Assembly: GCA_950295325.1 (NCBI GenBank)
Contig: OX485804.1
Location: forward strand, 45,064,429 to 45,128,428
Direction: 5' to 3'
From: Polytrichum commune
Taxonomy: Eukaryota > Streptophyta > Polytrichopsida > Polytrichales > Polytrichaceae
DNA length: 64,000 bases
This document shows, piece by piece, positions 22,899-58,070 of this stretch (positions are counted from its first letter, which is position 1; the number at the start of each line of letters is the position of its first letter). The translations under genes were made by a program, and so were the position numbers. The notes beneath the pieces are model-generated. The model worked only from the letters and a program-made list of their open reading frames with translations. It had not been told where the DNA came from and searched no databases.

Positions 22899-26660
<3,762 letters not shown>

Positions 26661-36890: not shown

Positions 36891-38051
36891 AGTATACGTA
36901 TTGGATGTTTCTTGCTAGAGTTAGTCACAGACACCTCGGTACTCTGGCTGGCAAGCCATTATCAACACTTAGTGCACATTCCTACTGTGGAGCAACTCAT
37001 CTCATGTCATCAACATTGAGGCCTGAAATAGCCATTATGAAGCTCTGGTTTCAAATTTATTGAAATTGGAGTGTGTGTGTACTTTTCCACGGAATATATA
37101 CATTGAGATGGGCACTGTGAAACTGTCTTCCGTACAGATGTTCATGGAAGCGCGTAGAGCATGGGCCGCATCCTACATCCTTGTAGAGTGTAGCACTGAC
37201 TATGGCGTGTACTTGTTGTCACCTGTTTTCATCTCTTGTAAGATTTAATAGGTGTGCAAGCAATTTGCAGAGACACCTGGCGTTTTTCCAATTGCAGGAA
37301 TGTCAATGCCAGTCAGTGTTCCTGATTCTATAAACATGGAAGTGTTGGAGACATTTTTCGTCATAGCCTCCAGATTTGCATGATCCTGATAATTTCAATT
37401 TGCGTTTCTTGCCTTTAGTTTGGTGATACGAAGGATCTAATGGAATATGCAAGAAGGCTCAAGTGTCATTGAATGGAAGAGACAAAGTGGTAACCAGGTG
37501 AGTATTCACAAGTGTCAAGGCCAGATGACTAAAATATACCACAGTAAGGACCATGGTAAGAAAAGCTTTCTGATTTGCTTTCAGATATTGCCCATCATCA
37601 ATGTAAGTGATGATGCCCTTACAATGCATTGTGCCTTCCTTTTGAAGGTTGAAGCAGTAGCACTAATTCTCATTTGATACTGCAGATAACCCTCTATAAT
37701 TCATGGAGATTATTGCTGCAGATAACCTTCTATGATACATGGAGATTCATTGTGGCGGGGGACCATTTCTGCTCACAAGGGCCCTGGAGTTCATTACCTA
37801 TCAATATCTAGGTAGAAGGTAGCTGGTACCAACTGTTGAGAGTGGTACATCCAGTACCCTCTTAGATATTGGGATGGAAGGAATCAACAACTTCAGGGGC
37901 CCCTGTGACCATGTCATTTGAATATGCCACAATTTTGATGAATTGATAACTTGCAAGGATTTTAAAGAGACTGATGGTAGGCCACTGTTCATGTCATCGC
38001 TAGCTAGACAGTTGATGATCCACTCCCTCTTGGTTGTACCATCATTCTTAG
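36891..38051. other. Region between TFIIA-L and gene X1
   Basis: TFIIA-L and X1 converge here. The stretch has no recognised gene. It includes a 34-bp tandem duplication at 37679-37748 (CTGCAGATAACC, then ATTCATGGAGATT-like) and the hairpin element at 37774-37907. The short open frames show no domain. Confidence 0.55.
37774..37907. mobile_element. Hairpin MITE, family M copy 1
   Basis: The left end CACAAGGGCCCTGGAGTTCA pairs with the right end CAACTTCAGGGGCCCCTGTG, and inner ATATCTAG..GGTAG pairs with CCTCTTAGATATT. The whole element of 134 bp can fold into a single hairpin. It lies in the 3' flank of gene X1. Confidence 0.8.
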
Positions 38052-41000
38052 TCACCTCCGCCGGGCTTGCGCCTTTGAGCTGCATCTGGTTCTGGTTCTG
38101 GTTTTGGTTCTAATATTCTGATAGTCTTCTGCCGTTTGAACATCCCACGCCACCTGCATTTGGTGAAATGCCACTGTGAGCATTATGATGTGTAAAGAAC
38201 AAGAGGCTATATCAACTTTTGGTCACTGGGCTCAAGACAGGTTTCCTTGGTGAAAGTGTTCAGTCTATTCTAGTGATAACGTAGCTCAACCCAACAGCAA
38301 CAGCGAACCTATGACCACCCAAAGCAATGGGTGGTTTTCATTCTAGAACGCAAATCTGGGATGTCCAAGGATCTCTCATTCATTGAAACTCTCATAAATC
38401 ACAGATCTTTGGACATCCTAGATTTGTGTTCTATGCCCACCCATTCATTTGGGTGGTCTTCAGATCGTAGTTGGTGCTACGTTGAACTACCTTACCCCAG
38501 GCCCTCAGTCCTAGGTTGTCCACTTTAGCACATGTTTACTTATGTGGTCAGTTCCCTGGATGCCCACAATTCCCTGTATGAGATTTCTCATGCTCAAGTG
38601 ATTCAAGCTCAGCTCCATCACGCCCTCAATATATAATCAATTCAATGTTCATCATGGACAACTGCTAAAAACATACCTTACATGTGCTTCAGTGGGCTCC
38701 GGAGTTCTGCACAATGCCAAGGCCGGTGTCAGAAACTTTAACTTCCAACCAACCTTCGAGTATAATTAACCATAACCACGGACTTCCCCGCATACTAACA
38801 GAAAGATGAGCTGAAATAGTGAAATGTAGTTGTCCAAGTTAATTTTGCAAGTCTGCAAAGATGAAATTGATGAGGTTCTCCACAAGGACCCTGAAGTTTA
38901 TCACCAAATCTGTCCCAAATCTGAAAATCTGGTAGATATTCACCATTCTCATCAATATGCTGCCATTTACCCAACCTAGATACTGGACAGAGGAGATGAG
39001 CTTCAAGGTCACTTACGGCATTAGATTTGGTGACCACCCATCATTCATTGCTGCTCCATCCGGGGAGAAAATTGATTGAACGGCGCCCAAGAATCTATCA
39101 CCAATTTGGCTGTTTGATTGTTTCGGTGTCCTAGGGCTGGGTGAAGGAGGAATGTCTCCCTTGTGTTGATCTGAGGAGGTTGCCAGAGAAATGTCTCTCT
39201 TCAGTTGATCTTGGGAAGCTGCCCGAGGAATGTCTCCATGGTCATGATATGCCAGAAGAGGATTGTTCCCAGAGTGATGATCTGTGGAGGTTGCAGGGGG
39301 TATGTCTCCAGCCTGATGATCTGAAGAGGCTGGAGGAGTAACGTCTTCGAAGTCTGGATCTGTCGCAGAAGGATTGCCTCCGAAGTGTTGTTGATATGGG
39401 TTGATTCCAGGAGCACTATCGCCAGTGCGATGATCTGGGGAGGCTGGAGGAGTAACGTCTTCGAAGTCTTGATCTGTCGCAAGAGGATTGCCTCCGAAGT
39501 GTTGTTGATATGGGTTGATTCCAGGAGCACTATCGCCAGTGCGATGATCTGGGGACGCTGGAGGAGTAACATCTTCGAAGTCTTGATCTGTCGCAGGAGG
39601 ATTGTCTCCGACGTGTTGATCTGGGGAGGCTGGCGGAGTAACGTCATCGGAGTCTTCATCTGTCCCAGGAGAACTGTCTCCAGCGTCATGATGTGTTGAA
39701 CGGGGATTGACTCTGAGGTGTTGATCTGGGGTCGTTGAAGGGGGAACGTCCCCGGGGTGATGAGCTGGGGAGGCTGGAGGAGTAACGTTATCGGAGTCTA
39801 CATCTGTCCCAGGAGAACTGTCTCTAGCGTCATGATCTGTTGAACGAGGATGGACTCTGAGGTGTTGATCTGGGCTGGTTGCAGGGGGAACGTCCCCGGG
39901 GTGATGATCTGGGGAGGCTGGATTAGTAATGTTATCGGAGTCTTCATCAGTCCCAGGAGAACTGTCTCCAGCGTCATAATCTGTTGAAAGAGGATTGACT
40001 GTGAGGTGTTGATCTGGGCTGGTTGCAGGGGGAACGTCCCCGGGGTGATGATCTGGGGAGGCTGGAGGAGTAATGTCTTCGGAGTCTTGATCTGTCGCAG
40101 GAGGGATGTCTCCCGGTAGTGGATACCGGGAGGTCGCAGGGGGAGCATCTCCGAGGGGCTGAGGTGGGGAGGTTGCATGGGAGATGTCTCCAGGGCGTTG
40201 ATCTGTGGCAGGATCATTTTTGTGCTGATCTGCGGAGGTTGCAGGATCACTCAACCTAGTACTGGCCAGAATTTCAGCTACTTCTGCTTCCAATTCTTCC
40301 TGAGCTTCCAGCTCTTTGAGTAGCCTTTTGTACCTGCAGTTTGTGCATGTCAATGTAAGCAATGTGATACGTAGAGAAATTGATACTGTTTATCAATTTT
40401 GGGTCATCAGTGGGGATGTAGATGTTCATAAATCAAGACACACAAGGGGCTCCAAATAAAGTGTACCAGTCCTCAAATGAATGATTATGGTACATGATGT
40501 TGATTCTTAGTTCAACTGTTGGTTTTGGATTTGTGTACCTCAAGTGGATCTTACACTTTGTCTAAGTAGTATGTAGATAAAAGTGTATCCTCCTATCTGG
40601 CATATATATACCAAGATCTTAGATATTGGAACAGATGTGACGAATCTAAACTAGGGCCCTGTGATACGAGTTAGGGTGAAGGTTTCCAGTCTATTTCACA
40701 CTGATATGTGTACTTAGGTGGCCCCATTCCAATTTATCGACATTCTACACTATTATAATTATTTATTATCACAGCAATAAACAACGATGATTTTTTTACC
40801 GTGGTTGCTAAATGGTTGAATAAAGATACTTTTTCAATTTTGACCCTAGGAAATTTGCATGCAACCTCTTGCCAAGGCAACCAAATTGCACATATCAGTG
40901 TACTGTAGTAATAGAAGATGTAATGTACTTACATAGCCATAATACTATGAAATCTGATCTGATGGTTGAGTAAAACACTGAATTCATAGACACAATGGAC

Positions 41001-44000
41001 ACATGTGCAGTATGAAACACTGCTCTAAGGAACATACCGCATCTTGGGTGATTCAAATAATTCTATTGGCACCAGAGACCGAGTAGATTTCACAAGCTCC
41101 TCAAACGTAGTGGGTCCCTGAGGAAGTTGTGCTCCTCCTGGCTCAGGACTGCATGCACATGTGGAGGAGTAAATAAGAAACATACCTATCTATATATATG
41201 CACATTAATGCTGATCATCATCAAGCCTTATAAAACAGGAACCTTTGAGCAAATTAACACCTGGGGACATATGCAGTAAAGTGGACAAAACCAACTTCAC
41301 CACACGTATCCCTAGGTGGTGTTATATGGAGAGGGAATTATCGCGTACGAGCGTACCTCTCATCCATCCAACATTAAAACTTGACTAAAAACTTGTGGCC
41401 GATTCATCTCAAATGACTTGGACTAGACCAAGTTGGGGTCTTTAAATTATTTCCCGTGTCAAAAACTAAAAACAGGAACTTCCAGGCTGCATTACTATTT
41501 CAGGGATTTTATGTTGTATGATTGAGAGGTACGCTCATATTCAATAATCCCCCCTCTCCATGTGTCCCTAGGTGGTATACATTTGCCAACAAGCTCTCTG
41601 TGCATGACCATGAGGTCCACACCTTAATCCATCCTGTATTCACAGACATGATACTAATCCTAACTTCAGGATATTGTCAGTTAGTTACTTGGTAAACCAG
41701 GGTAATTAATCTTTTGATCCCGAAACAAGTGTTATGATAATTTGTCACTTACAATTCGGATTGACGTAGTGCTATAACTCTTTAAGTTAGAATCTGGATT
41801 TTTACCAGGGTAAGTCTATTATCTTCTATGATGTTCAAATAACATGTTCGGCATTTGCAGTTAGAAAATAATATATATAGAAAAAAGATATAATGTAGTG
41901 CAATTCCCAATAGTAGATGACACAAAGTACTATAAACGGTGTTGCTCTCAGAATGTGAATTAGGTTGACCTAATGCCCTTTCTCAGACTCACAAAAAGGC
42001 CCTGAAGGTCATCACCACTGTCCAGTATCTGAAGTGGACATAGATGGTATCATTGGTGAAAGTATCATATTTACCTTCAGCCTAGATATTGAGAGAGAGG
42101 TGAAGAACTTTAGGATCCCTATGTCATGTAGTTTGAACAGATAACAGGCAATTTGGAATGGTGAAATATATGAGGTTCCCAAGTTATGATCATATGAAGT
42201 TTGCATAGATGATGAAATTCATGAGGTGGACATGAGCTTCTCATACACATACCCGAAAGTAAGTGCGCGCACTGCCCCTTCCTCTTGCTCCTTCCGTTTT
42301 ACGGTTGACCTTTTCTGCCTGCAAAATAATTAAAATAAACAACTATATGTGAGTGTCGATGTGGCAAGCATTGTGATCCTATTGAGAATTCTAGTGACAT
42401 GACATCAACTTTTGGTCACTAGGGATGCTGTACAAGAACTTTAGAAATCACAAAATCACCTTGCCTGACAACAGTTTCAAAGGGTGAAAACTTCCAATCT
42501 ATTCTAGGGATAGGAGAATCTGCGGCCCGCAGTAGATGTGAACTAGCCAGGCCATGGCACAAGGAACTGTGGACTAATATATATATATATATATATATAA
42601 AACAATACATAAATTTAAAATTTAATTTAATGTGGTTTATTAAAATGAAATGATCTAGAGTTTGCTGTGCGAAATCTCTTATGCTTATTTTAAGTAAATC
42701 TCGGCTTAAGACATCACATCCTCAAGGCATAATCTATTCATGTGCCCTCATGAAACACTGCTAAAAATCTACCTTGGTATTGGTGGAAATTCAATTGGCA
42801 CGGATCTGGATGACTCCCCAATAGCTTGCTGTCCAGGATGTTGGATCGCAGAAGCCTCTTCGACTTCCATCGGCTCCGGAGAACTAATTGGGAGTGCATG
42901 ACATGCCAAGGTCGATGTCAGAAACGTCACTACTAACAGGGAAGATTAAATTGAAATGATTGAATGTGGTTGCCCAAGGCCTCCACGAGTAATCCCCAGG
43001 TTTGATAATTTGTCCACTTTACCCCATGCTTCCTTATGTGGTAGATTGAATTGCCCAAAGCTCCTAGCTGTGTGAGATCTCTGATGCTTGAGTAATTAAC
43101 CTCAGATAATTTATCACGTCCTCAACATATAAATAAGTAAATCAATCACTTTTCCCCATGTTTCCCTTATGTGACTGAATTGCCCAAACCTCCTACACTG
43201 ATATGTGCAATTAGGTTGACCTGGCGACTAGGTTGACTCTTTACCCATGAGAATTACCTCGGGTCAAAATTATATCATAAAATTTTATAAATTTAATTAT
43301 TCATCCATATAGCAACCATATTAAAAAAGAAAAGAAAATTCATGAGTTTTGTGACCGCAGTTATACATATCCAAAACAGTGTGGAGTGTCGATAACTTAG
43401 CGTGGGTCAACCTAATTGCACATATCAGTGGATCTGTGTGAGATCTCTGATGCTTGAGTAATTACTGAGCTCAGCTAATTCAGATTCCATCAGGTCCTTA
43501 ACATATACATAAAATAAACGAATCATGTGCATAAATTAGTGAAACACAGGTCGAAGGAAATACATACGTCTCCCTGTCTGATTGAGTGTCCCATGAGGAG
43601 CTCAGATCCTCATCACTGGAGCTCAGATCCTCCTCAGACTCCCAATTGGGTGGCTCAAAGGGATGTTTGATCACAATATTGACCCATTTTCTGGCTCTGC
43701 ACATGCCAATTAGGCCGGTGTATATTAGAAACTTAAAGTATCCGCCAATCAACCCTTACAATTGACAATGACCATAAAACCCATTAGGGAACAGGAAATT
43801 TGGACTGAAATGTAGTTTCCCAGACTAATCATGCGGGTCTGCAAAGTAGATCAAATTGTTAATATTAAGGTAGAGTCACATCATGAGCTTCTCATAATTC
43901 ACTTACTGCTTTGGCAGCTTCGACATTGTACCAAGGCTGTTTGGATTCCTTCGTGACTGACCTTGGTATCCTGAATCCGCGCATAATTACAACAAGTATC

Positions 44001-44260
44001 ACATCAAATCTACTATGGTCAGGTTTGTTAATCAATTTTCTGATAATCGTCAAACAAAATAACAATTAACCCCATAGCCAAATTTCAACAGTGATCACAG
44101 CCAAACTTCCCAGAATCCCAACCTGAAGCGTTTGGATTTAATCTTGAATGATCACACCTTGGTATTGGTGACCACCTACACATTTCTGTATTGGATTAAT
44201 CGTATCAGGAATATCATATATTTATATTCAGGAAGCATATATTGTAGTGAGATGTATACC
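38052..44260 (-). CDS. Gene X1: modular acidic repeat protein, unrecognised
   Basis: Minus-strand exons that join in frame: 43907-43970, 43568-43696, 42773-42883, 42253-42318, 41038-41148, 39017-40333, 38682-38706, 38052-38153 (stop at 38052). A further segment ending at 44260 matches exon 1 of X2 but lacks its ATG, and its phase does not join directly, so the 5' end is unresolved. From 43568 to 41038 every exon starts with a codon's third base and ends after the second (symmetric). Two exon pairs are paralogous: 42773-42883 with 42253-42318 (SPEP.., RQKRSTVKRKEQEE) and 41038-41148 with the start of 39017-40333 (GPEP.., RYKRLLKELEAQEE). PEP recurs in 38682-38706. The main exon codes for acidic Pro/Asp repeats without Lys; the tail is basic (RTKTRTRTRC). 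No signal peptide, membrane segment or known domain was seen. Exon modelling only; no transcript evidence. Confidence 0.6.
38313..38458. mobile_element. Foldback element of 146 bp
   Basis: GACCACCCAAAGCAATGGGT at the left pairs with ACCCATTCATTTGGGTGGTC at the right, and AAATCTGGGATGTCCAA pairs with TTGGACATCCTAGATTT. Arms are about 58-60 bp with a short loop. It sits in an intron of X1. Confidence 0.8.
38881..39010. mobile_element. Hairpin MITE, family M copy 2
   Basis: CACAAGGACCCTGAAGTTTA at the left pairs with GAGATGAGCTTCAAGGTC at the right. In X1 orientation it begins seven bases after the large exon's end, so its terminus abuts the GTAAGT splice donor. Confidence 0.75.
39190..40120 (-). 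repeat. Protein-coding tandem repeats in X1 large exon
   Basis: In the X1 frame there are three consecutive units of about 48 residues (144 bp) built on SPDHHPGDVPPAT, SPDQHL, then STDHDAGDSSPGTDEDSD and VTPPA. They are followed by two nearly identical 38-residue (114 bp) units built on ATDQDFEDVTPPASPDHRTG and INPYQQHFGGNP. More diverged GD.PPAT units flank both sides. Frame is kept throughout, and DNA identity between the two 114-bp units is very high. The composition is Asp, Pro, Ser, Thr-rich and acidic. Confidence 0.85.
40698..40900. mobile_element. MITE, CACTGATATGTG ends, copy 1 (family N)
   Basis: It begins CACTGATATGTG and ends CACATATCAGTG, with further partial pairing inward. The length is 203 bp, with an AT-rich centre. 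It lies in an intron of X1. The same ends bound 43197-43430. Confidence 0.7.
41309..41576. mobile_element. MITE with 50-bp inverted ends (family Q)
   Basis: The left arm (CCCTAGGTGGT, ATGGAGAGGG, then GAGCGTACCTCTCA) pairs with the right arm (TGAGAGGTACGCTC, CCCCTCTCCAT, CCCTAGGTGG). The total is about 268 bp, located in an X1 intron. No target-site duplication was evident. Confidence 0.7.
41724..41947. mobile_element. MITE, family P copy 3
   Basis: The left end includes CACTTACAATTCGGATTGAC and GTAGTGCTATA. The right end's reverse complement gives CATCTACTATTGGGAATTGC and ACTACATTATA. This is the same structure as 21766-21988 but more diverged. It lies in an X1 intron. Confidence 0.55.
41990..42124. 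mobile_element. Hairpin MITE, family M copy 3
   Basis: GGCCCTGAAGGTCATCACC at the left pairs with GGTGAAGAACTTTAGGATCC at the right; inner CAGTATCTGAAG pairs with CTTCAGCCTAGATATTG. It lies in the X1 intron between exons 42253-42318 and 41038-41148. Confidence 0.7.
43197..43430. mobile_element. MITE with perfect 26-bp inverted ends (family N)
   Basis: CACTGATATGTGCAATTAGG plus TTGACC at the left is matched exactly by the reverse complement at the right end. The length is 234 bp. Flanking three-base sequences do not match, so no CACTA-type target duplication is seen. The exact ends indicate a younger element than copy 1. Confidence 0.85.
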
Positions 44261-45227
44261 TTACTCGCCAGGATGGGAAAATTCTCATAGAAGGGATGAT
44301 GGTGCTACTCGGATCAGTTGATGTGTTCAGCTAATTCTAGCCTAGTCACGAGCTTGATTCCAGAAACTATTTAATTCCGGTGATCTGTACATGAAGATTT
44401 TTTCAGGTTAACAATGTATATCAGGCTTATTATCACAATTTAAAAAAAAAAAAACGCTACAGTAGTGCTTTCGAGATCAAATGCCATAGATTTACCTATC
44501 CTAATCTCCGCATACCTACCTACTCACTTCGGAGCGTTCCACATTGTTCACAAAGTTCCACAGAAGCCTGTCAGCAAATCTTGTCACTGTAAGTCTTGGG
44601 AATCCACCAATTTCTAGATACTAAACTTATAGTAAGACGTAATTAATTAAGTGCAGGTCGGTCGATGTTTGATCGACAGATTAATTTGTGACAATTACTG
44701 CATTTTCGACCGGGTGTACTAATTGTATTCAAGCTAAGGATCTCTTAATTACAAATTGAACAATAGGAAGACTCGTCCAGTGACTTAATTAATCAGATGA
44801 TGAATCATAGTTGATTACCTGGTTCAAGCATGTTCCTCACAAGTTCCACTAAATTGGTAATTTGAAGGTTTGAAGGTCACATGATTCATACCGTACTCCA
44901 GCTTCAGATTTTCCAGGGAGTCCCAAACCGATCGAACACATGAACAACCAACTCGATCAACTGCATTAAAGCATATTATCAGCAATGCACACAAATTCTT
45001 AATGACAACGGTAATTCGAGCGAGCAGTAGCCACAATCAAGATGATGATGATAATCCGAAAGTGAGATTCGCTGCTTGCAGGTTAAGATGCCTGCTACTG
45101 CAGAGCTCACATATGCATATATCCCATGAATGTAGCAAATTCTTTTCTACAATTACCGGCGTTGCAAGAAGATCGGTCAACCCTGCTTGAAGGTTTGGAT
45201 AAATATATAAGATTATGGCCAGCCATT

Positions 45228-46610
45228 TCTCATGGTCCCATTTTGTAAACGGTCTAGTTGCACGCCAAAGGGAAGAGCTGTCGCCTTGGAGGAACCGGGG
45301 GAGAGGTGGAAGCTGTTCAGCCGTAGGATAGATGATCTGACGGCGTAGGATCGTGGGTCGCTGGAGTGAGGTGCCTCGATGCCTGGCAGCCGTTGGATCG
45401 ACGATCGAGGGTCTACTTTCTTCGCCCTGCCCTGCTCTGCTCTAAGGGGCTTCTGAGTCGCTCTTCTCAAGCCTTACATTTCACAAACAAACTTTGTGAA
45501 CCAAACTTTGGTGATGTAGATTTGAAGATAACATCCATACATGATACAGTAACTTGGTGATCAAGCTTGGGACATTATTATAGGGTGCAAGCTGTGTATA
45601 AATTACATGATCAAGCTATGTTTGTTAATTTTTAAAATGTTTTTAAAATATGTTTTTCTCTTGAAAGTATCATTTTATTTATTAAGATTTGTATAGCTCC
45701 TTGAGATACCTGTGATCTTCTTTTTCCTCACAGGTACTTACATAAAAGTAAGATAGTAACAAGTATTTACAAATAGCAAATATTATTATGATAAATGAAG
45801 ATTGTCAATTGAAGTTTCTTAATCCAAGTAGAGATGCAGAAGCTATGAGAGTTCAATTTAGTGAAGATCCTCTTTCTCTTTGTATGATCACATATGCCTT
45901 CCCAATGCAATTACTTATTTAATCCATCGTAACACATCTCTCTTTGGTGTCCAGTCTTAACTACAAGCCTTGTCATATACATCTCAAATAGAGGACCAAG
46001 TTCAATGAAGCGAAGTGTCTAAGGTAGATGTGCCTAATTCAACTACTTCTCTTTAGGTCCAACACCTAAAATTGAGTAGTATGTGGATCATTTGAAGTAG
46101 CTTCAAGAACAACAAGCTAGAAAACACGTGTTTAAAAGAGATTGGAATGCATGCTCAACATATGATAAACATTCTAAAATGTAAGCCAACTTTTAACAAT
46201 CAACATATTTGAGGGAACATATATGACCATGATGAGCACAAGCCTAATCTTCACCACGACAAGACATTCATATGAGCTCCAAAAATTACAAGGAAAGCGA
46301 CCATGGCCTCAATATTTTGGATTTGCTAACCATCTCGTACTAATAAATTGCGTGCTGCATATCCTAGTTGGAAAATGTAGTAACCATTCAAGACCCCTTC
46401 TACCTTGCCTTAACTAGCCGGGCAGAGCAAGGCTAAGATACACCTCGGTCGGCAATCCAACGGCTCCCAGGCCTCGAGGCTTTACGAGACCCACGATTCT
46501 CCGCCATCCGATCAAAGAGCCAACCCAGCAAAGGACTATGGCGACCGCTCTTCCCTGGGACCGTTTAACAAATTGGGTCCAGTCCCGGAAACTCCGATAG
46601 AAACTTTGGT
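45228..46610. mobile_element. Element with about 190-215-bp inverted repeats (Mutator-like?)
   Basis: The arms 45228-45445 and 46418-46610 are inverted copies, both GC-rich: GTAAACGGTC, GGGAAGAGC.GTCGCC, GATCGTGGGTC, GGCAGCCGTTGGAT and a CTGCTCTGC-type inner end. Arm length and the non-coding 970-bp core resemble non-autonomous Mutator-like elements, but no 9-bp target duplication was found. The core contains a family A repeat. It sits in the divergent space between X1 and X2 and could also contribute promoter sequence. Confidence 0.6.
45945..46415 (+). repeat. Dispersed repeat family A, rearranged copy
   Basis: 46128-46415 aligns with 21311-21600 (GTGTTTAAAAGAGATTGGAA, CATGCTCAACATATGATAAA, GGAAAGCGACCATGGCCTC). 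45945-46060 resembles the other part of the family in inverted order. It lies inside the element at 45228-46610. Confidence 0.5.
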
Positions 46611-46686
46611 TTGAAAAATCAAACCTCGCCGCCAGCTTCAACCATTTCGTAACGTAGAAAAGGAATGTAGCAAGTATCGACTTAGC

Positions 46687-49600
46687 ATGAGTTTCTGGAA
46701 GCTGCAAGGAGGCCAAAGATTATTCCGACCGATATATACCTGTGATCTGCAAGCTGCAATGCCTGGCTATAATAACAAGCTGAACACATCAACTGATCCG
46801 AACAGCATCACCAGCACTTCTTCCGGGAGAGATAGTATGCCATCTTGGGGAGTAAGGTACACATCTCGACAAGCTACAACATATATGCTTCCTGAATGAT
46901 ATATGGTATTCCCAATGCAATGTTAACCCGATCCTGGAAGTCAGGGTGTTGAATACCGTCACCAAGTTGTGAGCACTCTATTAGCTTAAAATTCATGAAT
47001 TTGTTTTTTGGGCTATGGAGTTTGATTGTTAGTAAGAATCGCAAGTTTAAAGCTATGATGTCACTGACCCTACATTTGTGATGCTCTTTATAATGAATGA
47101 TGCGTGGGTTTAGGAAACCAAGGTCAGCCAGAAGGAGATCAATCTCATCCAAACAGCCTTGGTACAATGGAGCCAGGGAATCCAAAGCCGTAAGTGAATT
47201 ACATTGAGAAGCTGTAACTGCTATATTTTAGTATCAACTTTGTCTGCCTTGGAGACTTTCATAATTGTAAACTCTATTTGCAGGGCAACTACATGATTTG
47301 AAATATTTCAATTCAAATTATTTCTTATTACGTGTTCCGATTTCATATTGGTCTTGTTGAATGGCATGCGCAGTCAAGAGGAGGCAGTGAATACCAAAGA
47401 GAAGAAAACAATTCATCCTGATCAACCCATTGAGGAGGCGGTTCATGAGAAACCGAGCTACGAAACACGCCTGATGAGGTACTAGCTAGACAATCTGATT
47501 CATTGCAATATTTCTTTCTGCACATGAACTTATATCTTGAGGACGTGATGAAGCGGAGCTAATTTACACCCAGCATGAGAGATTTCACGCAGGGAACTTT
47601 GCGTAGTTTACCACCTAAGGGAATATGTGATAATTCCCCAAACTTCCATCTGAATCTGATCACTAGACTAGGTTGGACCTTTTCACCCTGAGTTACAATA
47701 TCCCCAGTTAATGTCACTTGAACTAAACACATGACAATGCTAGCATCGTTATTCACAAAATACAGGTGGAAAAGGATATACAAAGCGCAGGCGAAGAGAG
47801 GCAAAGAAGACATACTTAAAAGGTGCACCTTATTGCACACCTATTTCATGATTTCAACGCAAATAATTTCATGTTACGTGTGCCAACTGAATGTCAATTG
47901 CGGTCCTCAAGTTCATCACCACTGGAGTCTCTTCCAATATCTAGGATAACGGTAGATGTGCCATCTGGTGCCATTTATGATCTGAGTCCTAGTTACTGAC
48001 AGTGGTGATGAATTTTAGGGCGCTTGTGTGAGTCTGAGACTAGACAGTTAGGAATTTTCTTTTGCATCTTTCGGAGGGGGTTGTTTCGACATCAGGAAAT
48101 TAAGTAATCTGGGTTTCCAGCACCCAACAGGCAGCATTCTCAACTTAGGGTAGAATCATGTCTAGGCATAAAAGAGTTGGCTATCATGGTCAAGGTTCGC
48201 CGGCCAAGGGTTAGGGTTTAGGGTTTAGGTTCCATGGCGAGGTTTAGTTTGAATGTTAGATAAGTCTACAGGCCGGGCCCTAAGTTTTATTACAGGTCTC
48301 TCTCCCAATATCTAGGAATTTGGTAGATGTATCACTTTCACCAGTGTACCATGCACAAAATGCAGGTGTAGAAAGGAGTACGAAGACGAGCTTCAGAATG
48401 CGATGAGAAAATCAGATACTGCAGAAGCAGCTCAAGCGTTACATCCGGCAACCTCCTCAAATCCAAAGGCGTAAGTTAATGAGCCAGAGTCCCTGAAGTT
48501 TATCACCTATCCAGTACCTTTGCCCGTGGTAGGTAGGTAGTACTAGTAAGTAATCTACCAAAACCCCACAAATTGAGACAGGATGATGAAGGGCGGCCTT
48601 GTGGATTGAACCCTGTACTCCACCTCATCGATTTGATCAACTCTGTAAACTTGCATATGTATCTTGGGCAACTACATCTCATCATTATCCTCTTTAATTC
48701 AAATTTCCTGTTACTTGGTGGACCTCATGGTACGTGTATTGATTAATAGATTCATTCATGGTTTTTCGGCAACTAATGTACGTCCTTTGATATCGACCTT
48801 GGCGTATGCAGGACTCTGGAGCAACGGCCAGTGAAAGCCACAGAACAGATCACTGGCTTCAAACATCCTGCAAATCGATCCACTGGGAAGGCACCAAATA
48901 AACCACCCTTACCGAGGTATCTTCCTAGCAGGTGTTCCATGATGCACATGCATGAAATGTATTTTGAGGACATCATGAATCAGGATAAGAGATTCCAGAG
49001 GGGGACATTGATTATTAGATTCATTCATGGTTCTTCGGCAACTAATGTACGTCCTTTGATATCGACCTTGGCGTATGCAGGACTCTGGAGCAACGGCCAG
49101 TGAAAGCCACAGAACAGATCACTGGCTTCAAACATCCTGCAAATCGATCCACTGGGAAGGCACCAAATAAACCACCCTTACCGAGGTATCTTCCTAGCAG
49201 GTGTTCCATGATGCACATGCATGAAATATATTTTGAGGACATCATGAATCAGGATAAGAGATTCCAGAGGGGGACATTGATTATTAGATTCATTCATGGT
49301 TCTTCGGCAACTAATGTACGTCCTTTGATATCGACCTTGGCGTATGCAGGACTCTGGAGCAACGGCCAGTGAAAGCCACAGAACAGATCACTGGCTTCAA
49401 ATATCCTGCAAATCGATCCACTGGGAAGGCACCAAATAAACCACTCTTACTGAGGTATCTTCCTAGCAGGTGTTCCATGATGCACATGCATGAAATATAT
49501 TTTGAGGACATCATGAATCAGGATAAGAGATTCCAGAGGGGGACATTGATTATTAGATTCATTCATGGTTCTTCGGCAACTAATGTACGTCCTTTGATAT

Positions 49601-52074
49601 CGACCTTGGCGTATGCAGGACTCTGAAGCAACGGCCAGTGAAAGCCAGAGTACAGATCACTGGCTTCAAACATCCTGCAAATCGATCCACTGGGAAGGCA
49701 CCAAATAAAGCACCCTTACCGAGGTATCTTCCTAGCAGGTGTTCCATGATGCACATGCATGAAATATATTTTGAGGACATCATGAATCAGGATAAGAGAT
49801 TCCAGAGGGGGACAAAAACCTGGGGAATGGAGGCTTTACAAGAGGAGTTATCCTTAGATTCGTTCAGAAATTCATGTTTTCGTAGGGAATTCCTCCCCTT
49901 GACAGTTTATAGTGATTAAGGAGTGTTCAAGTGTTGTCGGAACCCCTAATGCTGGTGAAATGAAGGGGATGCGTTTGATTTGGCCGAAAACCGGTTATGT
50001 AAAATCAGTTTCATAAGTAATAAATTTGAAGGCTAAAATGGTGCTCTCAGACTCGAAATTTTGACAGGGAGTGCATTTTTATATATCGGTTTGTTAGCCA
50101 AAGTCAAACAGCTCCCCTTCATCTCACCAAACGTAGAATTTAAGACACCACTTGAACACTCCTTCAACATCACTATAAATTGTCAATAGTGGAGAGGATT
50201 TCCCTACCAAACCATGAGTTTTTGACGGACCCTTATTACCACATGCCTCCCCATGTGGTACATTGCAGGCCAGCCCTTGTATCGTGCCTGCCTGGATTAC
50301 ATCTACTGCCGGTAGCAGATTATCTTGTCACTATTATACATTGAAATTCTCACCCTCTAAACCTGTACTCGTTGGCTAGCCTATATCCGTGCCAGGAACC
50401 GAAATATTATAGGACTTTGATAATTTCTCTTTAAATGCAGCTTCCATGACCATTCATCACAAAAAAAAATGCGGGTGTAAAATGTTGTACATAGAGCAGA
50501 TTCAGAATGCGAAGAGAAACGATGGAGAAGCAGTTCAAAGGAACGGTATGCGGGAGAAGCCCTAAGTGAATCATCATGAGCACAGGAACCCTAAAATTTA
50601 GTGTGACCTCTGTGCAGTATCTAGGAAGGACTGGTAGATGGTACCACTGGTGAGGGTGGTTCATCTACCATTTTCCTAGATGTTGGGACAAGAGGTGATG
50701 AACGTCAGGGTCCTTGTGAAGGACCTGTGGATCTCATCGATTTTATCTTTCGGACTTTAACCGCATTTCAACTTTGGGCATTCACCACATTTCATCATTT
50801 CAGTCAGGAATTCAATCCTGTTATGTGGTCGATTTCATAGTAATGGTTAATTGTAAGGGCTGATTGGCAATTAATGTAGGTTTTGCTGCCGGACTGATTA
50901 ATTGGCATGTGCAGATCTAAGCCGGAAGTGAAGGCCGAAAAACAGGTCATTTATACGCTCAAGCAATCCACTGGGGAGTCTGGCCAGGGTCCGAACTCCA
51001 GCGCAACTGAAGCCAAAATAGAGAAGTGTGTAATTTCCTTAGAGCAGTGTTTTATTATGCATGGAGGACGTGATGAAAATATAGCTGAGCTTGATTACTC
51101 AAGCATCAGACATCTCACACAGTTATTTTGGGCACTTTTTGTTTACCATATAAGTAAACAACATGTGGTAATTACGTGCAGAAATTTTTAAACCTGGGGG
51201 ATATATAAAGGCGGCCTTGGGCAACTACATTCAATAATTAATAATTCAATTTTCCCTGTTATGTGCTGGATTCTATGGTCATGTTTAATTGTAAGTCTAG
51301 TTCGTTGGCAGTAAATGTAATTTTCTGACAGTGGCCTAAGGTCTTGCAGACCGAGGAAGGCGGCAGTGGAAGCCGGAAAACAGATAAGTAAGATCCTCCG
51401 TCTTGAGGAGCAACCTATTGGGGAACCGTCGTCCAATAAGTTGGTTCGGAATGTGAAGGGAAAACAGGCAGAAGCAGTTCGAAGCACGAAACATCCTGCA
51501 ACCGCCGCAAATCCAAAGCCGTAAGTAAATGAGAATTACAGAGGCCCTGAAGTTCAATATCACCTTTAGTCGAGTATCAATGACTAATGTAGATGATGGC
51601 ACTACACCATACATGATATTTAGACTTTAGTGTCACGCACACTATTGGCGAACTGCCTAAACTAGATGCCTAGAAGTCTAGTAATGTCACATCTGCTAAT
51701 TGTCAACATGGTCCACTATTTGTCAACATACGTTTTTTTTTCTATAGTTCATACTATTTATAGTATGGTTTTTATACCACATTGAACTGGTCAAGGTGAT
51801 AATTTTACGTTTTAATATGCAAGAGGAAGATATTATTGAACACACTAATGCCAACTACCAGGTGCTTTACAAGTATGCAAGAGGAAGAGAATATTGAGTA
51901 TAATAAATATTGTAAAAACAATTGGCAACTAATGTACATATCTGTAATACTGGCTTTGGCATGTGCAGATCGACACAACTTTTGGAGACACATAAAGCAA
52001 TCGAAAAAGGTAAACATCCTGCAGAGCGAGCTGAGCAGAATCCGCCCTCCGATCCAGGACCTGATGAAAACTGA
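46687..52074 (+). CDS. Gene X2: modular basic protein with exon cassette array, unrecognised
   Basis: Plus-strand exons that join in frame: 47114-47189, 47374-47478, 47766-47822, 48366-48470, 48812-48916, 49081-49185, 49350-49454, 49619-49723, 50915-51025, 51350-51520, 51969-52074 (stop). Lengths of 105 or 111 recur, and from 47374 on all internal exons are symmetric between phase-2 introns. Acceptors share GGCATGTGCAG or GGCGTATGCAG; donors share CCAAAGCC|GTAAGT or GAG|GTATCT. A candidate first exon 46687-46856 (ATG, MSFWKLQGGQRLF) matches X1 near 44260, but its phase does not fit 47114 directly. The product is Lys/Arg/Pro-rich; a KHPA motif recurs (GFKHPANRSTGKAPNK, STKHPATAANPKP, GKHPAERAEQNPP). 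RWKRIYKAQ in 47766-47822 matches RQKR and RYKR of X1, showing common origin. No known domain was seen; exons are inferred from phase, paralogy and splice motifs. Confidence 0.6.
47902..48023. mobile_element. Hairpin MITE, family M copy 4
   Basis: GGTCCTCAAGTTCATCACCA at the left pairs with CAGTGGTGATGAATTTTAGG at the right. It lies in the X2 intron after exon 47766-47822. Half-length relatives occur at 48276-48335, 48490-48550 and 51550-51610. Confidence 0.75.
48737..49813 (+). repeat. Four 269-bp tandem exon cassettes
   Basis: Four units spaced exactly 269 bases apart differ at only a few positions each. Each unit has an acceptor (GGCGTATGCAG|G), a 105-base exon coding for 35 residues (LEQRPVKATEQITGFKHPAN and onward) and a donor (GAG|GTATCT), plus intron on both sides. 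Exons: 48812-48916, 49081-49185, 49350-49454, 49619-49723. Unit 3 changes His to Tyr and two Pro to Leu; unit 4 changes Glu to Lys, Thr-Glu to Arg-Val and Pro to Ala. There are no stops or splice-site losses. The array ends sharply at AGGGGGACA. Minus-strand frames of 67 codons also repeat but are shadows. Confidence 0.92.
50475..50561 (+). pseudogene. Decayed X2 exon with both splice sites lost
   Basis: This aligns with exon 48366-48470 (GTGTAAAATG.., TTCAGAATGCGAAGAGAAA, GAAGCAGTTCAA). It is open in the matching frame and keeps a length of 1 plus a multiple of 3 plus 2. The acceptor is TGCGG instead of TGCAG and the donor is CTAAGT instead of GTAAGT. It is probably skipped. Confidence 0.6.
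50581..50718. mobile_element. Hairpin MITE, family M copy 5
   Basis: CACAGGAACCCTAAAATTTA at the left pairs with GATGAACGTCAGGGTCCTTG at the right; CTGGTAGATGGTACC pairs with GGTTCATCTACCA. It starts 20 bases after the decayed exon at 50475-50561. Confidence 0.8.
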
Positions 52075-52556
52075 AGAGGTATAATTGTAGCAGTCTTTCA
52101 CGATGCCCATCATTTGATTAGATGTTGAGGACCTGCTACTCTAAACCCTAAACCCTAATTAACATAGCACATGAAATTTATCGCCACACTAAATCAGATC
52201 ATATTCGCATCATCGTAGCATCTCCTATCACTACAATAGATTGAATGTTTTCACGCAGCTGGGACGTCAAACCTGTCGACGTAAGCTCAGTAACTTAACG
52301 AAAACTGATGTACCACTTAATCCCACATTCTTGACATTCGAAAATCCTTACGTCAATATCTCACGAAATGCAGGTGGAAAAGTTATACGGTAACGAGCAA
52401 AACAATCCGAGGAACTTAGCTATAGTAGAAGGATTCCTGCGACTCTTGCTGAAATTTTATCCCCAAATCAACCGCAGTGGAGGGCAGGTGGATCAGGCAG
52501 CCAAGAACAAGAGTGAATCTCCCAGTACAACGAGAATTGGTCATCACGCAGACTAG
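51969..52556 (+). other. Alternative X2 terminal exons in another frame
   Basis: Exon 51969-52078 has a GAG|GTATAA donor, and 52374-52556 begins after TGCAG and is open for 60 codons to a TAG. Read together in a frame different from the one imposed by upstream X2 exons, they code for a helical segment: SELSRIRPPIQDLMKTEE, joined to VEKLYGNEQNNPRNLAIVEG and FLRLLLKFYPQIN. The start of 52374-52556 resembles exon 47766-47822 but with one base fewer. Either X2 uses an alternative acceptor, or this is the end of a separate gene. I do not recognise the domain. Confidence 0.4.
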
Positions 52557-53056: not shown

Positions 53057-56000
53057 CTATTCTAATTTAGTTATAGCAGCCTGCATTTCAGACACTCTCC
53101 TGTCTAAGCGCTGAATCTCTGCATGAGTTGACATGATCACCCATTTTATTATTTCATCAGTAGTTCACCGTCAAGTCCAAGCAAGTACCAAATTCGAGAA
53201 CCTTTATACGTCAGATCAACTGTGGAAGAGTACAACAAAAATGGATGGTAGCTGATGAAGTGACACATCAATGGAAAATTGAATGCAAGTACATTTATGC
53301 CAACAACTGAACTCATGGGTTCAAAAATTAATTACATATTTCTGGTAGAAGCTTTTCACAACATACCGATGGTACTTGTCTCTATCTTACGATTATATCA
53401 GAGAGCCAGAAATGTCATTCTAAGTACACATAAATTCTGTAGCCCTCTCAAATTTAATCTTTGGGATCAAAAGAGCCTCAAAATAGATCCTGACGGTTCG
53501 AGTCTTCCTGCGATGAAGCAGCATTAACATTTCCCATCAGAAAAATCTCCCCTCATTTCTGCGACCGGATCAGGCATTAGCAGGCCTAATTGTATCACCA
53601 TGTTCGATCACTGCAACAAACGACGTTCTGAGTCGACGCTAAACCCGATCAACGGATAGGGTTTAGGGGCTAGGATTAATTTTCTCCCCAAATTTATGTT
53701 TGTGTTGACTATCAAACCTAGAACATTATTCAATTTTCGAGCACAAAAGGTAGACGGAGTCTGTGTTATTCGGATATTTTCTATCTGCGCCCACTTCTGG
53801 TAGGAAATGAAACACGCAATTAGTGCGAGAATGATGACTAGAAAATCCATCAAATCGTGTCCTCATGTGAAATCTTGTTCATTATCAAAGTGGAGAGTCT
53901 CATGCTCATTAAGTGCTCATACATGTCCCCTCAATCATGTTGACTATTGAATCTAGGATATTTTGATCATTATCGTTAAGTGTCTCACACTAATTAGGTT
54001 CATTACATGTCTCCCTTCCATCATGTTGACTATTGAACCTACAATGGTTAGTACATTCTGAGCATGTAGGTTGATCTCTTCTAGCCATATGATGTCTTTT
54101 TGGTGGCCGTTCTTAGATTCACACCCAACTACATACCACTCAAATGTCGCTGTCCAGATTATTGCTATGTTGGATTTAGGCACGCCTACCTTAGTCCAAT
54201 CTCTTTTAAGAACATGACGCCTAGCTTTCTGGTGTGCACACCTAATTAACCACGTACCACTCAAATAGTCTAGAATTTTTATTAAGATAGCTGACCAGAT
54301 TGGGTCCGCTGAATTACCTGAATTTTACGCTTGACCATAAGGTCTATAAACTCAGAGCCCCGATCCAATGTCGACTTTGGGATATTCCTTTTCCTGGACT
54401 GGCGATTAGAAGATGTAACTGGCTGCTTGGAATTGACGCTGACGATTTCATTTTGGTCCGTCTGAGCAGCAGCTGACTCCGCGGAATTAGATGTCGCCTC
54501 ATCACGTCTCTGATCACTGTTCAGGTAGTTTGTGAAAGTTCTTGTTCCATGGATCCTCCTGATTTTTAATTAAAAAACTTCAAATATGAACGAGGGTGGC
54601 ATCCCACATGTGATCAATTTCGATCCGGTCGGTGGGGTCATGACCTAGAAATTGTCGTAGCTGAAATTAAATTGACTGCCAGGTTTAAGTGTAAGTTTAT
54701 GATTTATCTATTTCCGACCAATTGGCCAAGGCCCCATCCTCATGCACAGAACAAGAACAAGAACAAGAACAAGAAAGTGTGGCTGACCGCTCGAAAATGA
54801 CTGTGTCGTCGTTTTTGTTCAGCTGCTTTGTTGCAGAGTACTCATCCAGCAGAGGTGCAGCTACAAATGTCGAAGCGGGGAGCGGCGAAGTAGAAGTAAC
54901 AATCTCATTTTGGTCCAGCTTCTGAGCAGTTACAGTCGCTGAATGAGTCGTTGCTTCATCACGTCTCCGAGCTCTGTTCAGTTATTAATCGTGAAATTAG
55001 TAGGGATTAATCTCCCCCAATTCACATCATAAGAAGGGAACGAGGATGACACATCCGGCCACATGTGAATTACGATGCAAGCCTCCGGTCAATGGGGCCA
55101 TGACCTAAATATATGTCGTAGATGACAAGTTGACGCCAGGGTTAAGTGAAATTTCAAGATCCTATTTTGACCTATTGGCCAAGACTCCACTCTCATGCAC
55201 AGTCGGAGAAGAAGGTGTAGCTTGCCGCTCTAAACTGACGTCTCCGACGACGTCCTCCTCGAGGTTTGTTGCAGAGTCATCCAGATGAACTGCAGTTGCA
55301 AATGCCGCAGCTAGTGGAGCAGCAGCTGCAGAACTAACCCTTTTGTATTGGTCCTTCTCATCAGACTTCGTGGAACTGGATGTTGGACTCATCGCACCAT
55401 GATTTGTTTTTTGATTCGTGTGGAATTTGAAAGAGATGTGCCTGAATCAACAAATGCGGATGCATCTCGATGATCAAAGTGAATTTCGATGCAAGCATCC
55501 GGCCAGTAGTACATCTGTATAAGATCATGATCTAAATATTGTCGTAGCTAATTAATGTCAAAAAATTGACAGGGTTTAGTACTGCTAATTTCATGATTCT
55601 ATTCTGATAAATTGATTTCAAACTATGCTACTGGCCCCGACAAATATAAGATTCAATTAAGACATACATGCTACATATGGATTATAAGTCTCACAGACTG
55701 GTACAGAAATCAAATTAAGTGCTTATGAACATCATACTGGATCCCGTGCATCATGGAGCTGTACTAGTATTGCAGGGAATCGAAAATTACACACCTAGGC
55801 CCCACTTGGCCCTCTGAATAGAATTCATCATCACTACTCCCGTCAATTGGTCCGCGATATTCTTCTGATGAATCCGTTTCAAAAATTTCTTCATATCTCT
55901 CATCACTGGGCATGCATGCAGGTAATTCATTCGTGAAAGAATTAGTAGGGATCTCATTCCTGGTTTAGTTGGCATGATCAAAGAACTAAATGAGCATGAC

Positions 56001-56367
56001 GGTTTAAAAATTGTTCGTAGCAGATCATCATAAGAAGTTGACAGGGTAATTAACTGCTTCATTCTTGTCTAGTGATCTATTCATCATATGAAATTAGGCG
56101 ACCGGAGACACGAATATATAGATTCAATCAATGAGGATACCCGCCCATGCTATGGATTATACATGAATTCTCACATGCTTGAACAAGTTAATTAGGTATT
56201 CATCATATAAAGTGAAAGTACCGCACCATATTAGAGCTGCAGGAAATTCATACATATATAATATGATACCTCGTCATTTTATGAATCTCGGAGTCCAAAT
56301 CATCTTCTATTTCGAACTGATGATCCATCCTTTTCTCTAAGTTCGGCCATTTGTCATCGTCTGCCAT
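53057..56367 (-). CDS. Gene X3: acidic modular protein, unrecognised
   Basis: The minus-strand start exon 56270-56367 (MADDDKWPNLEKRM, then acidic residues) joins in phase to 55795-55905 (111 bases, symmetric; SDERYEEIFETDSSEEYRGP). Downstream candidate exons are repeated about every 430 bases: about 55162-55392 (QYKRVSSAAAAPL, ERQATPSSPTVHESG), about 54730-54975 (DEATTHSATVTAQ, DQNEIV) and 54318-54509 (DEATSNSAESAAAQ, DQNEIV, then a basic RQSRKRNIPKSTLDR, FIDLMVKRKIQ). A possible last exon at 53057-53118 codes for a short coiled-coil-like end (IQRLDRRVSEMQAAITKLE). Phases between 55795-55905 and the later exons are not settled. The acceptor GCATGCATGCCCAG resembles those of X1 and X2. No known domain was seen; the 54730-54975 copy may be broken near its splice sites. 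Confidence 0.4.
53940..54260 (-). repeat. Dispersed repeat family A, copy
   Basis: Reverse-strand order: TTAAAAGAGATTGGACTAAG, GACAGCGACATTTGAG, GGGTGTGAATCTAAGAACGG, CCAAAAAGACATCA, CATGCTCAGAATGTACTAAC, GTAGGTTCAATAGTCAACAT. It lies in an X3 intron. Its 103-codon open frame is not preserved in other copies. Confidence 0.55.
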
Positions 56368-56670
56368 CGTAAACTCCTCCTGCATCGTCTGGTACCAATT
56401 TATTGAAATCTATGATCATTCAATCAGAAATTATGCAACATTTAATGAGGAATAATTCATTTCTAGTGAACTAAACACATGATGTTATCTAATATATACT
56501 ACTCCTGTCAAGCACCTAGCAAACGTTCTTGGAGGCACTTATCAACAACATCCTAGATAAGTACACCTCGTAAACCGCAGTACAATCTCTTCCACATTAC
56601 TAACCCTCAAGACCTAATTACATAATTACAATTTCTTCTAAATATTCAAACTTTGAGTTCTCTAACTCAC

Positions 56671-56767
56671 TTGTCCCTCTAATTCGAGTTCATCATCATC
56701 ACTTTTGTCATTTGGTCCGCGATATTCTGGTGCAGTTGATTCAACAGTTTCTTCATATCTCTCATCA
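56671..56767 (-). CDS. Duplicate X3-type exon upstream of X3 start
   Basis: This is a paralogue of exon 55795-55905: same acceptor context (GCATGCATGCCCAG), same opening (DERYEE) and EYRGPND versus EYRGPID, ending at a CAA|GTGAGT donor. It lies upstream of the X3 ATG exon, so it belongs to an alternative 5' end, a second copy of the gene or a remnant. The phase at its end (0) differs from that of its paralogue. Confidence 0.4.
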
Positions 56768-58070
56768 CTGGGCATGCATGCAGATAATTCATCCCTGAAA
56801 TAACTAGTAGGGATAGTTACAAAAGGAACATAATTTCAAAACTTTCTTCATATTCATCTTGCAGTGAACACGGCATTGCAACCGGGCGATCGACATGAGA
56901 CCATCGTATCATGAAAATTCAATAAGAAGAAGTAAGCAATCTCATGCAGATTCAGATGCCCTAATATCCCCATCCAAGACGACCTCGGTTGTTCAACTAT
57001 CGGCTCCTGCTTGGCCGCATTCTTATGGGTGTGAAATTTTGAACGAAGCAATCAATTGGGAATTGAAAACTATGTCAAATTGTCAATTAACACACCAATT
57101 GTTGGCGATAACATATCATTCACCACCCACAAAATTCGAATTCACGCTAATGAATTACTAAATCCATAAATACATGCCTATTGTTGTGGGCTGAAAGTTA
57201 GTGTGGGTAGAAAATATCGTGGCCCACTGTCCAGTGTATTTTATGTGTGGTTTGAGAATTTCGTAGGGTGGTTCAAAAACCAATAATTATTGATCTCATA
57301 ATATTATTTACAATGTTAAGGGTTCCGTGATGCTCCACCAATCATTGACAATGATATATGATTTAAAGTAGCAGTAAACTAAAGCCCAATAATACTAGTT
57401 CCTCTATTTAGAATTTCTTATTTGTGTTTTCAAAAATGTTTTAATTCAAATTTGGATATTGAGATTGTTTATAAGTTGGTCATTTGAGTATTGACATGTA
57501 CCATGGGGGTTGAGGGGTAGTGAACATTGTCGCCTACATGTTCACTTTGAATAATCATTTTCATGATACTAATAATATATGACGTTTCATGATATTACTC
57601 TATATGAACTCAAATGAAAGAATTTAGGGGTAAAATGACAATTTCAAAGTGTTGGGGTTCCAAAGTAGGATCAAAGATGTACTATAAAATTTAAGGTCCA
57701 AGACCTTCTCCTCTACCTCAAGAAATTTGTATCCCCAATTGTGTCCACTAACACAACATTGAAATATCTGGCCGTTATCTTCCTTGTGGTTGCACAAATC
57801 CAGAAAAAATGATTAATAGCCCACAATTGATAGAACCCATCTTGCACCTTGTCATTGTAACCTAAGTTGCCATTTACACAAAAAAATATGGTTTTACATG
57901 TTGACAAGATATCGAATACATGATTTTGATTTGCACCCTAGACTGCAACAAGAAATTGAAGTGATCTTCTATATTTGCCAATCACAAAGCATGATCATAC
58001 CGGTACTTGACTCACAATTGAAAATGAGAGGTTGTATTACAACATAGCCCCACATATTGTAATACATATA

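What the first reader, a model, noticed from the sequence alone, without database searches (positions are those of the whole stretch)
38052..52556. Divergent gene pair built from interchangeable phase-2 exon modules
At least 15 exons of X1 (-) and X2 (+) share the same architecture: lengths near 57-66, 105 or 111 bases, start at the third codon base, end after the second, acceptor GGCATGTGCAG-like, and introns upstream with a shared block (TTAATTGTAAGGG.. GATTGGCA.. GTTTCTGACA). Paralogous exons occur within and between the two genes. Seen directly: sequence similarity and phases. Established: symmetric exons can be duplicated, shuffled or skipped without frame loss. Inference: this is a locus evolving by repeated duplication of exon-intron units, giving a family with combinatorial and quickly changing proteins, plausibly new to annotation.
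Basis: partly seen in the sequence, partly recalled or inferred. Interest (0 to 1): 0.85.

Follow-up and report, generated by a model that had tools for sequence, protein, structure and literature searches.

The report
Plant gene pair built from exon-modules
Two neighbouring plant genes, pointing away from each other, seem to have grown by repeated copying of short exon units that keep the reading frame while the protein sequence drifts about as fast as the introns; no transcript has yet been checked.

Summary
In a non-flowering plant genome (judged by chlL on the plastid contig) two divergent paralogous genes, X1 (-) and X2 (+), contain 15 internal exons that start on codon base 3 and end after base 2. 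They form two homologous classes. In strict leave-one-out profiles 9 of 12 A rows and 5 of 7 B rows reach E < 1e-3. At homology-anchored acceptors the best donor gives a symmetric open phase-2 exon in 7 of 16, against 18 of 212 background sites. A conserved ATG gives open frames of 629 aa (pI 4.6) and 365 aa (pI 10.1), hydrophilic, without Pfam match. Exons are no better conserved than adjacent introns, yet the frame survives. This fits coding genes that grow by duplicating exon-intron units and tolerate many amino-acid changes. Some intron similarity is dispersed repeat and must be discounted. Expression, combinatorial splicing and function were not tested.

The parts
38048..43926 (-). X1 predicted coding region, 8 coding exons, 629 aa, pI 4.6
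   Evidence: open frame ATG to stop when the eight curated exons are read in order
43907..43926 (-). X1 start-codon exon (coding part), ends in phase 2; stretch around it conserved with X2
43568..43696 (-). X1_A1 class A exon, 129 nt
   Evidence: leave-one-out E 6e-7 on the fixed alignment but missed after realignment; intron end 82% like X2_A3; top donor symmetric
42773..42883 (-). X1_A2 class A exon, 111 nt
   Evidence: leave-one-out E 3e-4
42253..42318 (-). X1_B1 class B exon, 66 nt
   Evidence: leave-one-out E 1e-4, 0.0012 realigned
41038..41148 (-). X1_A3 exon, 111 nt, assigned to class A; not recovered when left out
39017..40333 (-). X1_B2 class B exon enlarged to 1317 nt by in-frame repeats (39, 72, 105, 114, 144 nt spacings)
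38677..38706 (-). X1_A4 class A exon, 30 nt
   Evidence: leave-one-out E 3e-9, 3e-8
38048..38153 (-). X1_B3t terminal class B exon with stop codon
   Evidence: leave-one-out E 3e-9, 3e-7
47167..52074 (+). X2 predicted coding region, 11 coding exons, 365 aa, pI 10.1 (3' end uncertain)
47167..47189 (+). X2 start-codon exon (coding part), ends in phase 2
47374..47478 (+). X2_A1 exon, 105 nt; not recovered when left out
47766..47822 (+). X2_B1 class B exon, 57 nt
   Evidence: leave-one-out E 6e-9, 2e-9
48366..48470 (+). X2_B2 class B exon, 105 nt; most of its intron end is a dispersed repeat
   Evidence: leave-one-out E 3e-4, 0.0014
48738..49814 (+). four tandem 269-bp units, each with a 105-nt class A exon (48812-48916, 49081-49185, 49350-49454, 49619-49723)
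50472..50561 (+). broken class B unit: both splice sites altered
50915..51025 (+). X2_A3 class A exon, 111 nt
   Evidence: leave-one-out E 4e-12, 1e-10
51350..51520 (+). X2_A4B4, 171-nt exon: an A exon fused to the end of a B exon
51969..52074 (+). X2_A5 class A exon with in-frame stop; an alternative donor at 52009 is possible
   Evidence: leave-one-out E 1e-5, 2e-5
52374..52556 (+). X2_B5t terminal class B unit, homologous to X1_B3t; used only if X2_A5 is spliced earlier
   Evidence: leave-one-out E 1e-5, 6e-4; peptide match to X1_B3t p 0.007
45333..45441 (-). upstream (promoter or leader) block of X1, inverted match to 46416-46514
   Evidence: 74%
46416..46514 (+). upstream (promoter or leader) block of X2
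44208..44332 (-). X1 probable 5' leader exon and intron block, inverted match to 46778-46912
   Evidence: 76%
46778..46912 (+). X2 probable 5' leader exon and intron block

Best explanation
X1 and X2 are a head-to-head pair of paralogous protein-coding genes made by an old inverted duplication that included the upstream region, a leader exon and the start-codon exon. Each gene was then lengthened separately by tandem duplication of small exon units, each unit being an exon plus its upstream intron end. There are two unit classes, A and B, which mostly alternate. Because the units are symmetric in phase 2, unequal exchange or slippage inside the introns adds or removes a module without breaking the frame. 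The products are long, hydrophilic, probably disordered proteins of opposite net charge (X1 acidic, X2 basic). Selection keeps the frame, splice sites and general composition but hardly any individual residue. Shown here: the unit homology, the phases, the open frames, the recent tandem array, the dead unit and the lack of exon conservation above intron level. Inferred: that the genes are transcribed and translated, that the proteins are disordered (composition only, no predictor run), and that they act as flexible multivalent proteins or precursors in which composition matters more than sequence.
For: A and B acceptor regions align within and between genes. Leave-one-out profile hits: fixed alignment 10 of 12 A and 7 of 7 B rows; realigned, 9 of 12 A and 5 of 7 B rows at E < 1e-3. 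No hit with E below 2 elsewhere in 94 kb. Inverted matches between X1 and X2 in mirror order at 74-76% in the upstream, leader and start-exon blocks. Symmetric phase-2 exon from the top-scoring donor at 7 of 16 acceptors against 18 of 212 background sites, p = 2e-4. The phase-2 frame has no stop in 17 of 19 curated units, while the other two frames are closed in 18 and 16 of 19. Open frames of 629 and 365 codons from an ATG at the same place in both genes. Under neutral substitution all 11 exons tested would stay open with probability 10^-2.1 to 10^-3.8 at 10-20% change. Four tandem copies at 97-98%: 7 exon changes, all replacements, and 3 intron changes.
Against: No transcript or peptide evidence exists. 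There is no sign of purifying selection on residues, which a decaying gene would also show. At 9 of 16 acceptors the top-scoring donor is not the symmetric one. X2_A5 holds a stop, and the X2 3' end is not settled. Three of the 12 A rows are not recovered in the strict leave-one-out test, and the B signal weakens there too. Peptide similarity between exons of a class is weak: 5 of 49 pairs at p < 0.02, about 1 expected. The exon set was curated by hand, which favours open frames.
Confidence: 0.58

Rival explanations
1. Decaying or noncoding locus: exon-intron units were duplicated in the past, but one or both genes are now pseudogenes or produce only noncoding RNA, so exons and introns drift alike.
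For: Exons are no better conserved than introns; replacement changes only in the exons of the fresh copies; one dead unit at 50472-50561 and a stop in X2_A5.
Against: Frames of 629 and 365 codons are open over 8 and 11 curated exons; a neutral substitution model predicts broken frames; the 1317-nt X1 exon has 0 stops in its frame against 6 and 22 in the other two sense frames; symmetric donors exceed background.
Confidence: 0.22
2. A diversity-generating secreted protein family of the bicycle or micro-exon-gene kind, in which skipping of symmetric exons yields many protein variants.
For: Same structural signature: many small symmetric phase-2 exons, fast sequence change, internal duplications.
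Against: No hydrophobic N-terminal segment in MSKLPKQ.. or MEPGNPK.. (by eye); 0 and 1 cysteine; no transcript data; no complementary docking sequence for the A or B block.
Confidence: 0.08
3. The repeats are produced by a transposable element that carries exons, so the units are element copies rather than gene-internal duplications.
For: Dispersed repeats are present in several introns; fold-back pairs lie at 38277-38494, 41329-41556 and 49913-50169.
Against: DNA searches that included 13 of the 16 independent units found matches outside the locus only in other parts of the introns, apart from the repeat next to X2_B2. Protein searches with two exons hit only themselves. These searches are insensitive: most did not recover the known paralogous units, and searches scored only 40 of 1147, 88 and 3320 first-look candidates.
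Confidence: 0.05

Closest known systems
Aphid bicycle and megacycle genes (PMC9168663, passages read)
   Same: Many small internal exons, nearly all phase 2; fast divergence; megacycle grew by internal tandem duplication with shared intron positions.
   Different: Insect family, many members strongly expressed in or secreted from salivary glands (passages); signal peptides and CYC motifs are recalled. X1 and X2 are in a plant, lack an evident signal peptide and have 0 and 1 cysteine.
Tomato prosystemin gene (exon pairs recalled, McGurl and Ryan 1992, not seen in any call; disorder from passages of PMC9173717)
   Same: Recalled: 10 of 11 exons form five homologous pairs, so two alternating exon classes grown by duplication. 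Disordered plant protein (passages).
   Different: The abstract passage places it in Solanaceae; restriction to that family is recalled. This genome is not a flowering plant. No systemin-type peptide was sought by alignment.
Schistosome micro-exon genes (PMC10526429, passages read, and abstract start)
   Same: Short exons, in the majority multiples of three, between long introns.
   Different: Exons up to 81 bp and secreted parasite proteins; here 12 of 15 internal exons exceed 81 nt and come in two homologous classes.

Membership tests
Aphid bicycle genes | internal exons nearly all phase 2 and small | tested here: met
   15 of 15 curated internal exons are phase 2 to phase 2; 14 of 15 are 171 nt or shorter
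Aphid bicycle genes | N-terminal signal peptide (recalled) | tested here: not met
   N-termini MSKLPKQ.. and MEPGNPK.. are hydrophilic; judged by eye, no predictor run
Aphid bicycle genes | cysteine-bearing CYC motifs (recalled) | tested here: not met
   0 and 1 cysteine in the predicted proteins
Prosystemin | exon pairs repeated in tandem (recalled) | tested here: met
   two exon classes, mostly alternating
Prosystemin | occurs in Solanaceae | tested here: not met
   chlL-type gene (PF00142) on contig C8; its loss in flowering plants is recalled knowledge
Prosystemin | C-terminal systemin peptide | not tested
   no alignment was made
Schistosome micro-exon genes | exons of at most 81 bp coding secreted proteins | tested here: not met
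   12 of 15 internal exons are longer than 81 nt and no signal peptide is evident by eye
Dscam-type mutually exclusive exon array | selector sequences complementary to a docking site in the same transcript (recalled) | tested here: not met
   the A and B profiles give no opposite-strand hit within the genes; only complementarity to these blocks was tested
Any Pfam family | match above the curated score | tested here: not met
   best E 0.15 for X1 and 0.099 for X2, scores below cut-offs

The most novel reading that the evidence does not exclude
X1 (pI 4.6) and X2 (pI 10.1) are a co-regulated head-to-head pair whose disordered products of opposite charge bind each other, for example as partners in a charge-driven condensate or as opponents in a genetic conflict. 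Exon-module copy number would be the dial that tunes valence, so the genes evolve by length and charge instead of by sequence.
Probability: 0.07. Interest if true: 0.85.

Novelty: new variant of a known kind. Interest (0 to 1): 0.5.

Why it matters
The locus is a compact natural experiment in how symmetric exons let a gene grow and shrink. It shows fresh copies, old copies, a fused exon, an enlarged exon and a dead exon side by side, in two genes that share one origin. If the genes are expressed, they would be a plant case of proteins held by frame and composition rather than sequence, a class that similarity-based annotation tends to miss. It also gives a simple prediction: module copy number should vary between individuals.

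Tried and rejected
Single exon class for all units: rejected, since two classes have different acceptor regions.

All X1/X2 intron similarity taken as unit duplication: rejected in part, because several intron stretches are dispersed repeats.

The TTAATTGTAAGGG core as a marker of the family: rejected, 16 matches in the genome against 17 in the reversed control. A 35-place consensus pattern of the A acceptor found 0 matches in the window at up to 3 mismatches, so such patterns cannot find the family.

Positive selection: not shown. 7 of 7 exon changes in the tandem copies are replacements (chance 0.09), 7 of 10 changes fall in the exon (p = 0.048), and the X1 144-nt repeat has dN/dS 1.9 in the coding frame against 0.64 and 2.4 in the shifted frames, while the 114-nt repeat has 0.44 (0.52 and 0.48 shifted).

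Exons diverging faster than introns: not shown (A: intron scored higher in 18 of 28 pairs, p = 0.15; B: 12 of 21, p = 0.89; X1_A4 and three near-identical A2 copies were left out).

Exon gaps as multiples of three in DNA alignments: uninformative (17 of 49 in exons, 22 of 81 in introns, 11 chosen pairs).

X3 (54.3-56.8 kb) as a further copy of the family: no A or B profile hit. Mutually exclusive splicing by docking sites: no complementary hit. Rfam: no match in the window. The promoter scan covers bacterial-type sites and says nothing here. Two covariance models were built but never used in a search that ran. The listings of paper searches showed me no description of such a plant locus; I read passages of five papers only.

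Full report
Setting. The window lies at C2:45064429-45128428 of a 407.8-Mb genome in 64 contigs. Neighbouring reading frames encode a ClpP-type protein (17347-17772) and a MYST histone acetyltransferase (24707-26194). Contig C8 carries rbcL and a chlL-type gene, so I take it as plastid DNA. Flowering plants lack chlL (recalled), which makes this a non-flowering land plant. The species was not identified.

What is there. X1 runs on the minus strand and X2 on the plus strand, back to back. I curated 19 exon units from the sequence (12 A, 7 B) and aligned 90 bases of intron plus 45 bases of exon. Class B ends in CACAAAATGCAG|GTGGAAAAGG. With the alignment fixed, profiles built without the tested row recover 10 of 12 A rows and 7 of 7 B rows at E 3.2e-4 or better; reversed-window hits have E 0.75 or worse. 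With realignment after removal, 9 of 12 A rows and 5 of 7 B rows reach E < 1e-3, the other two B rows 0.0012 and 0.0014, and the best reversed-window E is 0.22; X1_A1, X1_A3 and X2_A1 are missed. X1_A1 is still tied to X2_A3 by an 82% match over the last 70 intron bases and by a blastn match. Because a dispersed repeat covers most of the X2_B2 intron end, I repeated the test without it: 4 of 6 B rows reach E < 1e-3, X2_B5t has 0.0016 and the broken unit 0.11. In 94 kb around the locus no further hit with E below 2 appears. The order is A A B A B A B in X1 and A B B A A A A (dead B) A (A+B fused) A B in X2.

Phases. Fifteen internal exons are open in phase 2 at both ends: 129, 111, 66, 111, 1317 and 30 nt in X1; 105, 57, 105, 105, 105, 105, 105, 111 and 171 nt in X2. 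To guard against choosing ends that fit, I took the homology-anchored acceptors, counted the four tandem copies once, and let a donor score choose the exon end. The choice gave a symmetric open phase-2 exon at 7 of 16 acceptors, or 7 of 12 when the long, terminal and dead units are set aside, against 18 of 212 background GCAG sites outside the locus (p = 2e-4 and 2e-5). The donor weights in that script are recalled approximations for plants.

Gene models. In both genes an exon-bearing stretch conserved at 74% holds an ATG at the same place, followed by an end in phase 2. Read from there, X1 is open for 629 codons over 8 exons and X2 for 365 codons over 11 exons. The predicted proteins are hydrophilic (GRAVY -1.08 and -1.19), with pI 4.6 and 10.1, and 0 and 1 cysteine. 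Their N-termini show no hydrophobic stretch by eye. Pfam gives nothing above its cut-offs, and the large X1 exon has no PDB match. The X2 end is uncertain: X2_A5 contains a stop, but a stronger donor upstream could lead to the terminal B unit, which resembles the X1 terminal exon.

How it grew. X1 and X2 share, in mirror order, the upstream block (45333-45441 with 46416-46514), a leader block (44208-44332 with 46778-46912) and the start exon (43886-43988 with 47096-47213), so the pair most likely arose by an inverted duplication. Inside X2 four 269-bp units are 97-98% alike. One unit has lost both splice sites (50472-50561), and one exon joins an A exon to the end of a B exon (51350-51520). 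Inside X1 one B exon has been enlarged to 1317 nt by in-frame repeats. Dispersed repeats must be left out of this argument: 48298-48352 and about 47900-48028 (six pattern matches in the window), 43194-43430 (42 further places listed), 38276-38494 and 41329-41560.

Selection. Introns next to the exons are as similar between units as the exons are: A introns score higher in 18 of 28 pairs (p = 0.15) and B introns in 12 of 21 (p = 0.89). In the four fresh copies the changes are 7 in exons, all replacements, and 3 in introns, the latter all in the first unit. The chance that seven random changes are all replacements is 0.09, so this is no proof of positive selection, and the dN/dS values of the X1 repeats are not informative. 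The residues look almost free, while the frame is kept: under neutral substitution the 11 exons tested would all remain open with a probability of 10^-2.1 to 10^-3.8, before counting length changes.

Uniqueness. DNA queries over X2 46600-48560, 48700-49020 and 50780-51560 and X1 38040-38820, 40250-42450 and 42700-45450 found, outside the locus, only matches to the repeats named above and to one further intron stretch (about 40704-40902). They cover 13 of the 16 independent units; the broken B unit, X2_A5 and X2_B5t were not queried. Within the locus one search recovered two X1 intron stretches, another the X1 leader and start-exon blocks and one repeat copy, and the tandem copies. Protein queries with the fused exon and with the large X1 exon found only themselves. 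Most queries did not recover the known paralogous units, and searches scored only 40 candidates each, so absence elsewhere is not shown. Other plant genomes could not be searched.

Comparison. The phase-2, small-exon, duplicated architecture is like that of aphid bicycle and megacycle genes (PMC9168663, passages), but there is no signal peptide by eye and hardly any cysteine, so it is not a member. Among plants the tomato prosystemin gene, recalled to have five homologous exon pairs and reported as disordered (PMC9173717, passages), is the closest in design; it is a Solanaceae gene. Schistosome micro-exon genes (PMC10526429, passages) are similar in spirit only.

Verdict. It is best read as a pair of coding genes that grow by copying symmetric exon-intron units and tolerate many residue changes. 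The combinatorial claim and the function remain untested.

Noticed in passing
54300-56850 (-): A third gene-like stretch, X3, also has duplicated units that open in phase 2 (exon starts 54516 and 54973; 55905 and 56767) but no A or B similarity; one unit may use a GC donor (by eye). A DNA search found no other copy in the genome.
   Followed up: partly
48298-48352, 47934-47958, 50662-50686, 42068-42092, 37801-37825, 40605-40629: CCAATATCTAGG..GGTAGATG repeat in introns; the 48298-48352 copy has matches on all seven large contigs.
   Followed up: partly
43194-43430 (also 40699-40902): Dispersed element of about 235 bp inside X1 introns, in opposite orientations; 1147 first-look candidates, 40 scored. 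It lies between two copies of one intron block (43068-43148 and 43434-43525).
   Followed up: partly
38276-38494 and 41329-41560: Two dispersed fold-back elements in X1 introns.
   Followed up: partly
49913-50169: Fold-back pair with 76-nt arms in an X2 intron, probably a small inverted-repeat element.
   Followed up: no
39145-40188 (-): In-frame repeat array (39-nt based, higher-order 72, 105, 114, 144) coding a D, P, S and T rich repeat of the type TPPASPDHHPGDVPPATSPDQH.
   Followed up: partly
G000 contig C8 (L009, L011): Contig C8 has rbcL, a frame that I recognise as accD (no search made) and a chlL-type gene; the best rbcL match in the PDB is 9chz, organism not shown.
   Followed up: partly
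45798-46342: The spacer between X1 and X2 matches other stretches of the window and flank (21205-21522 and 316-438), so it is probably repeat-derived.
   Followed up: no
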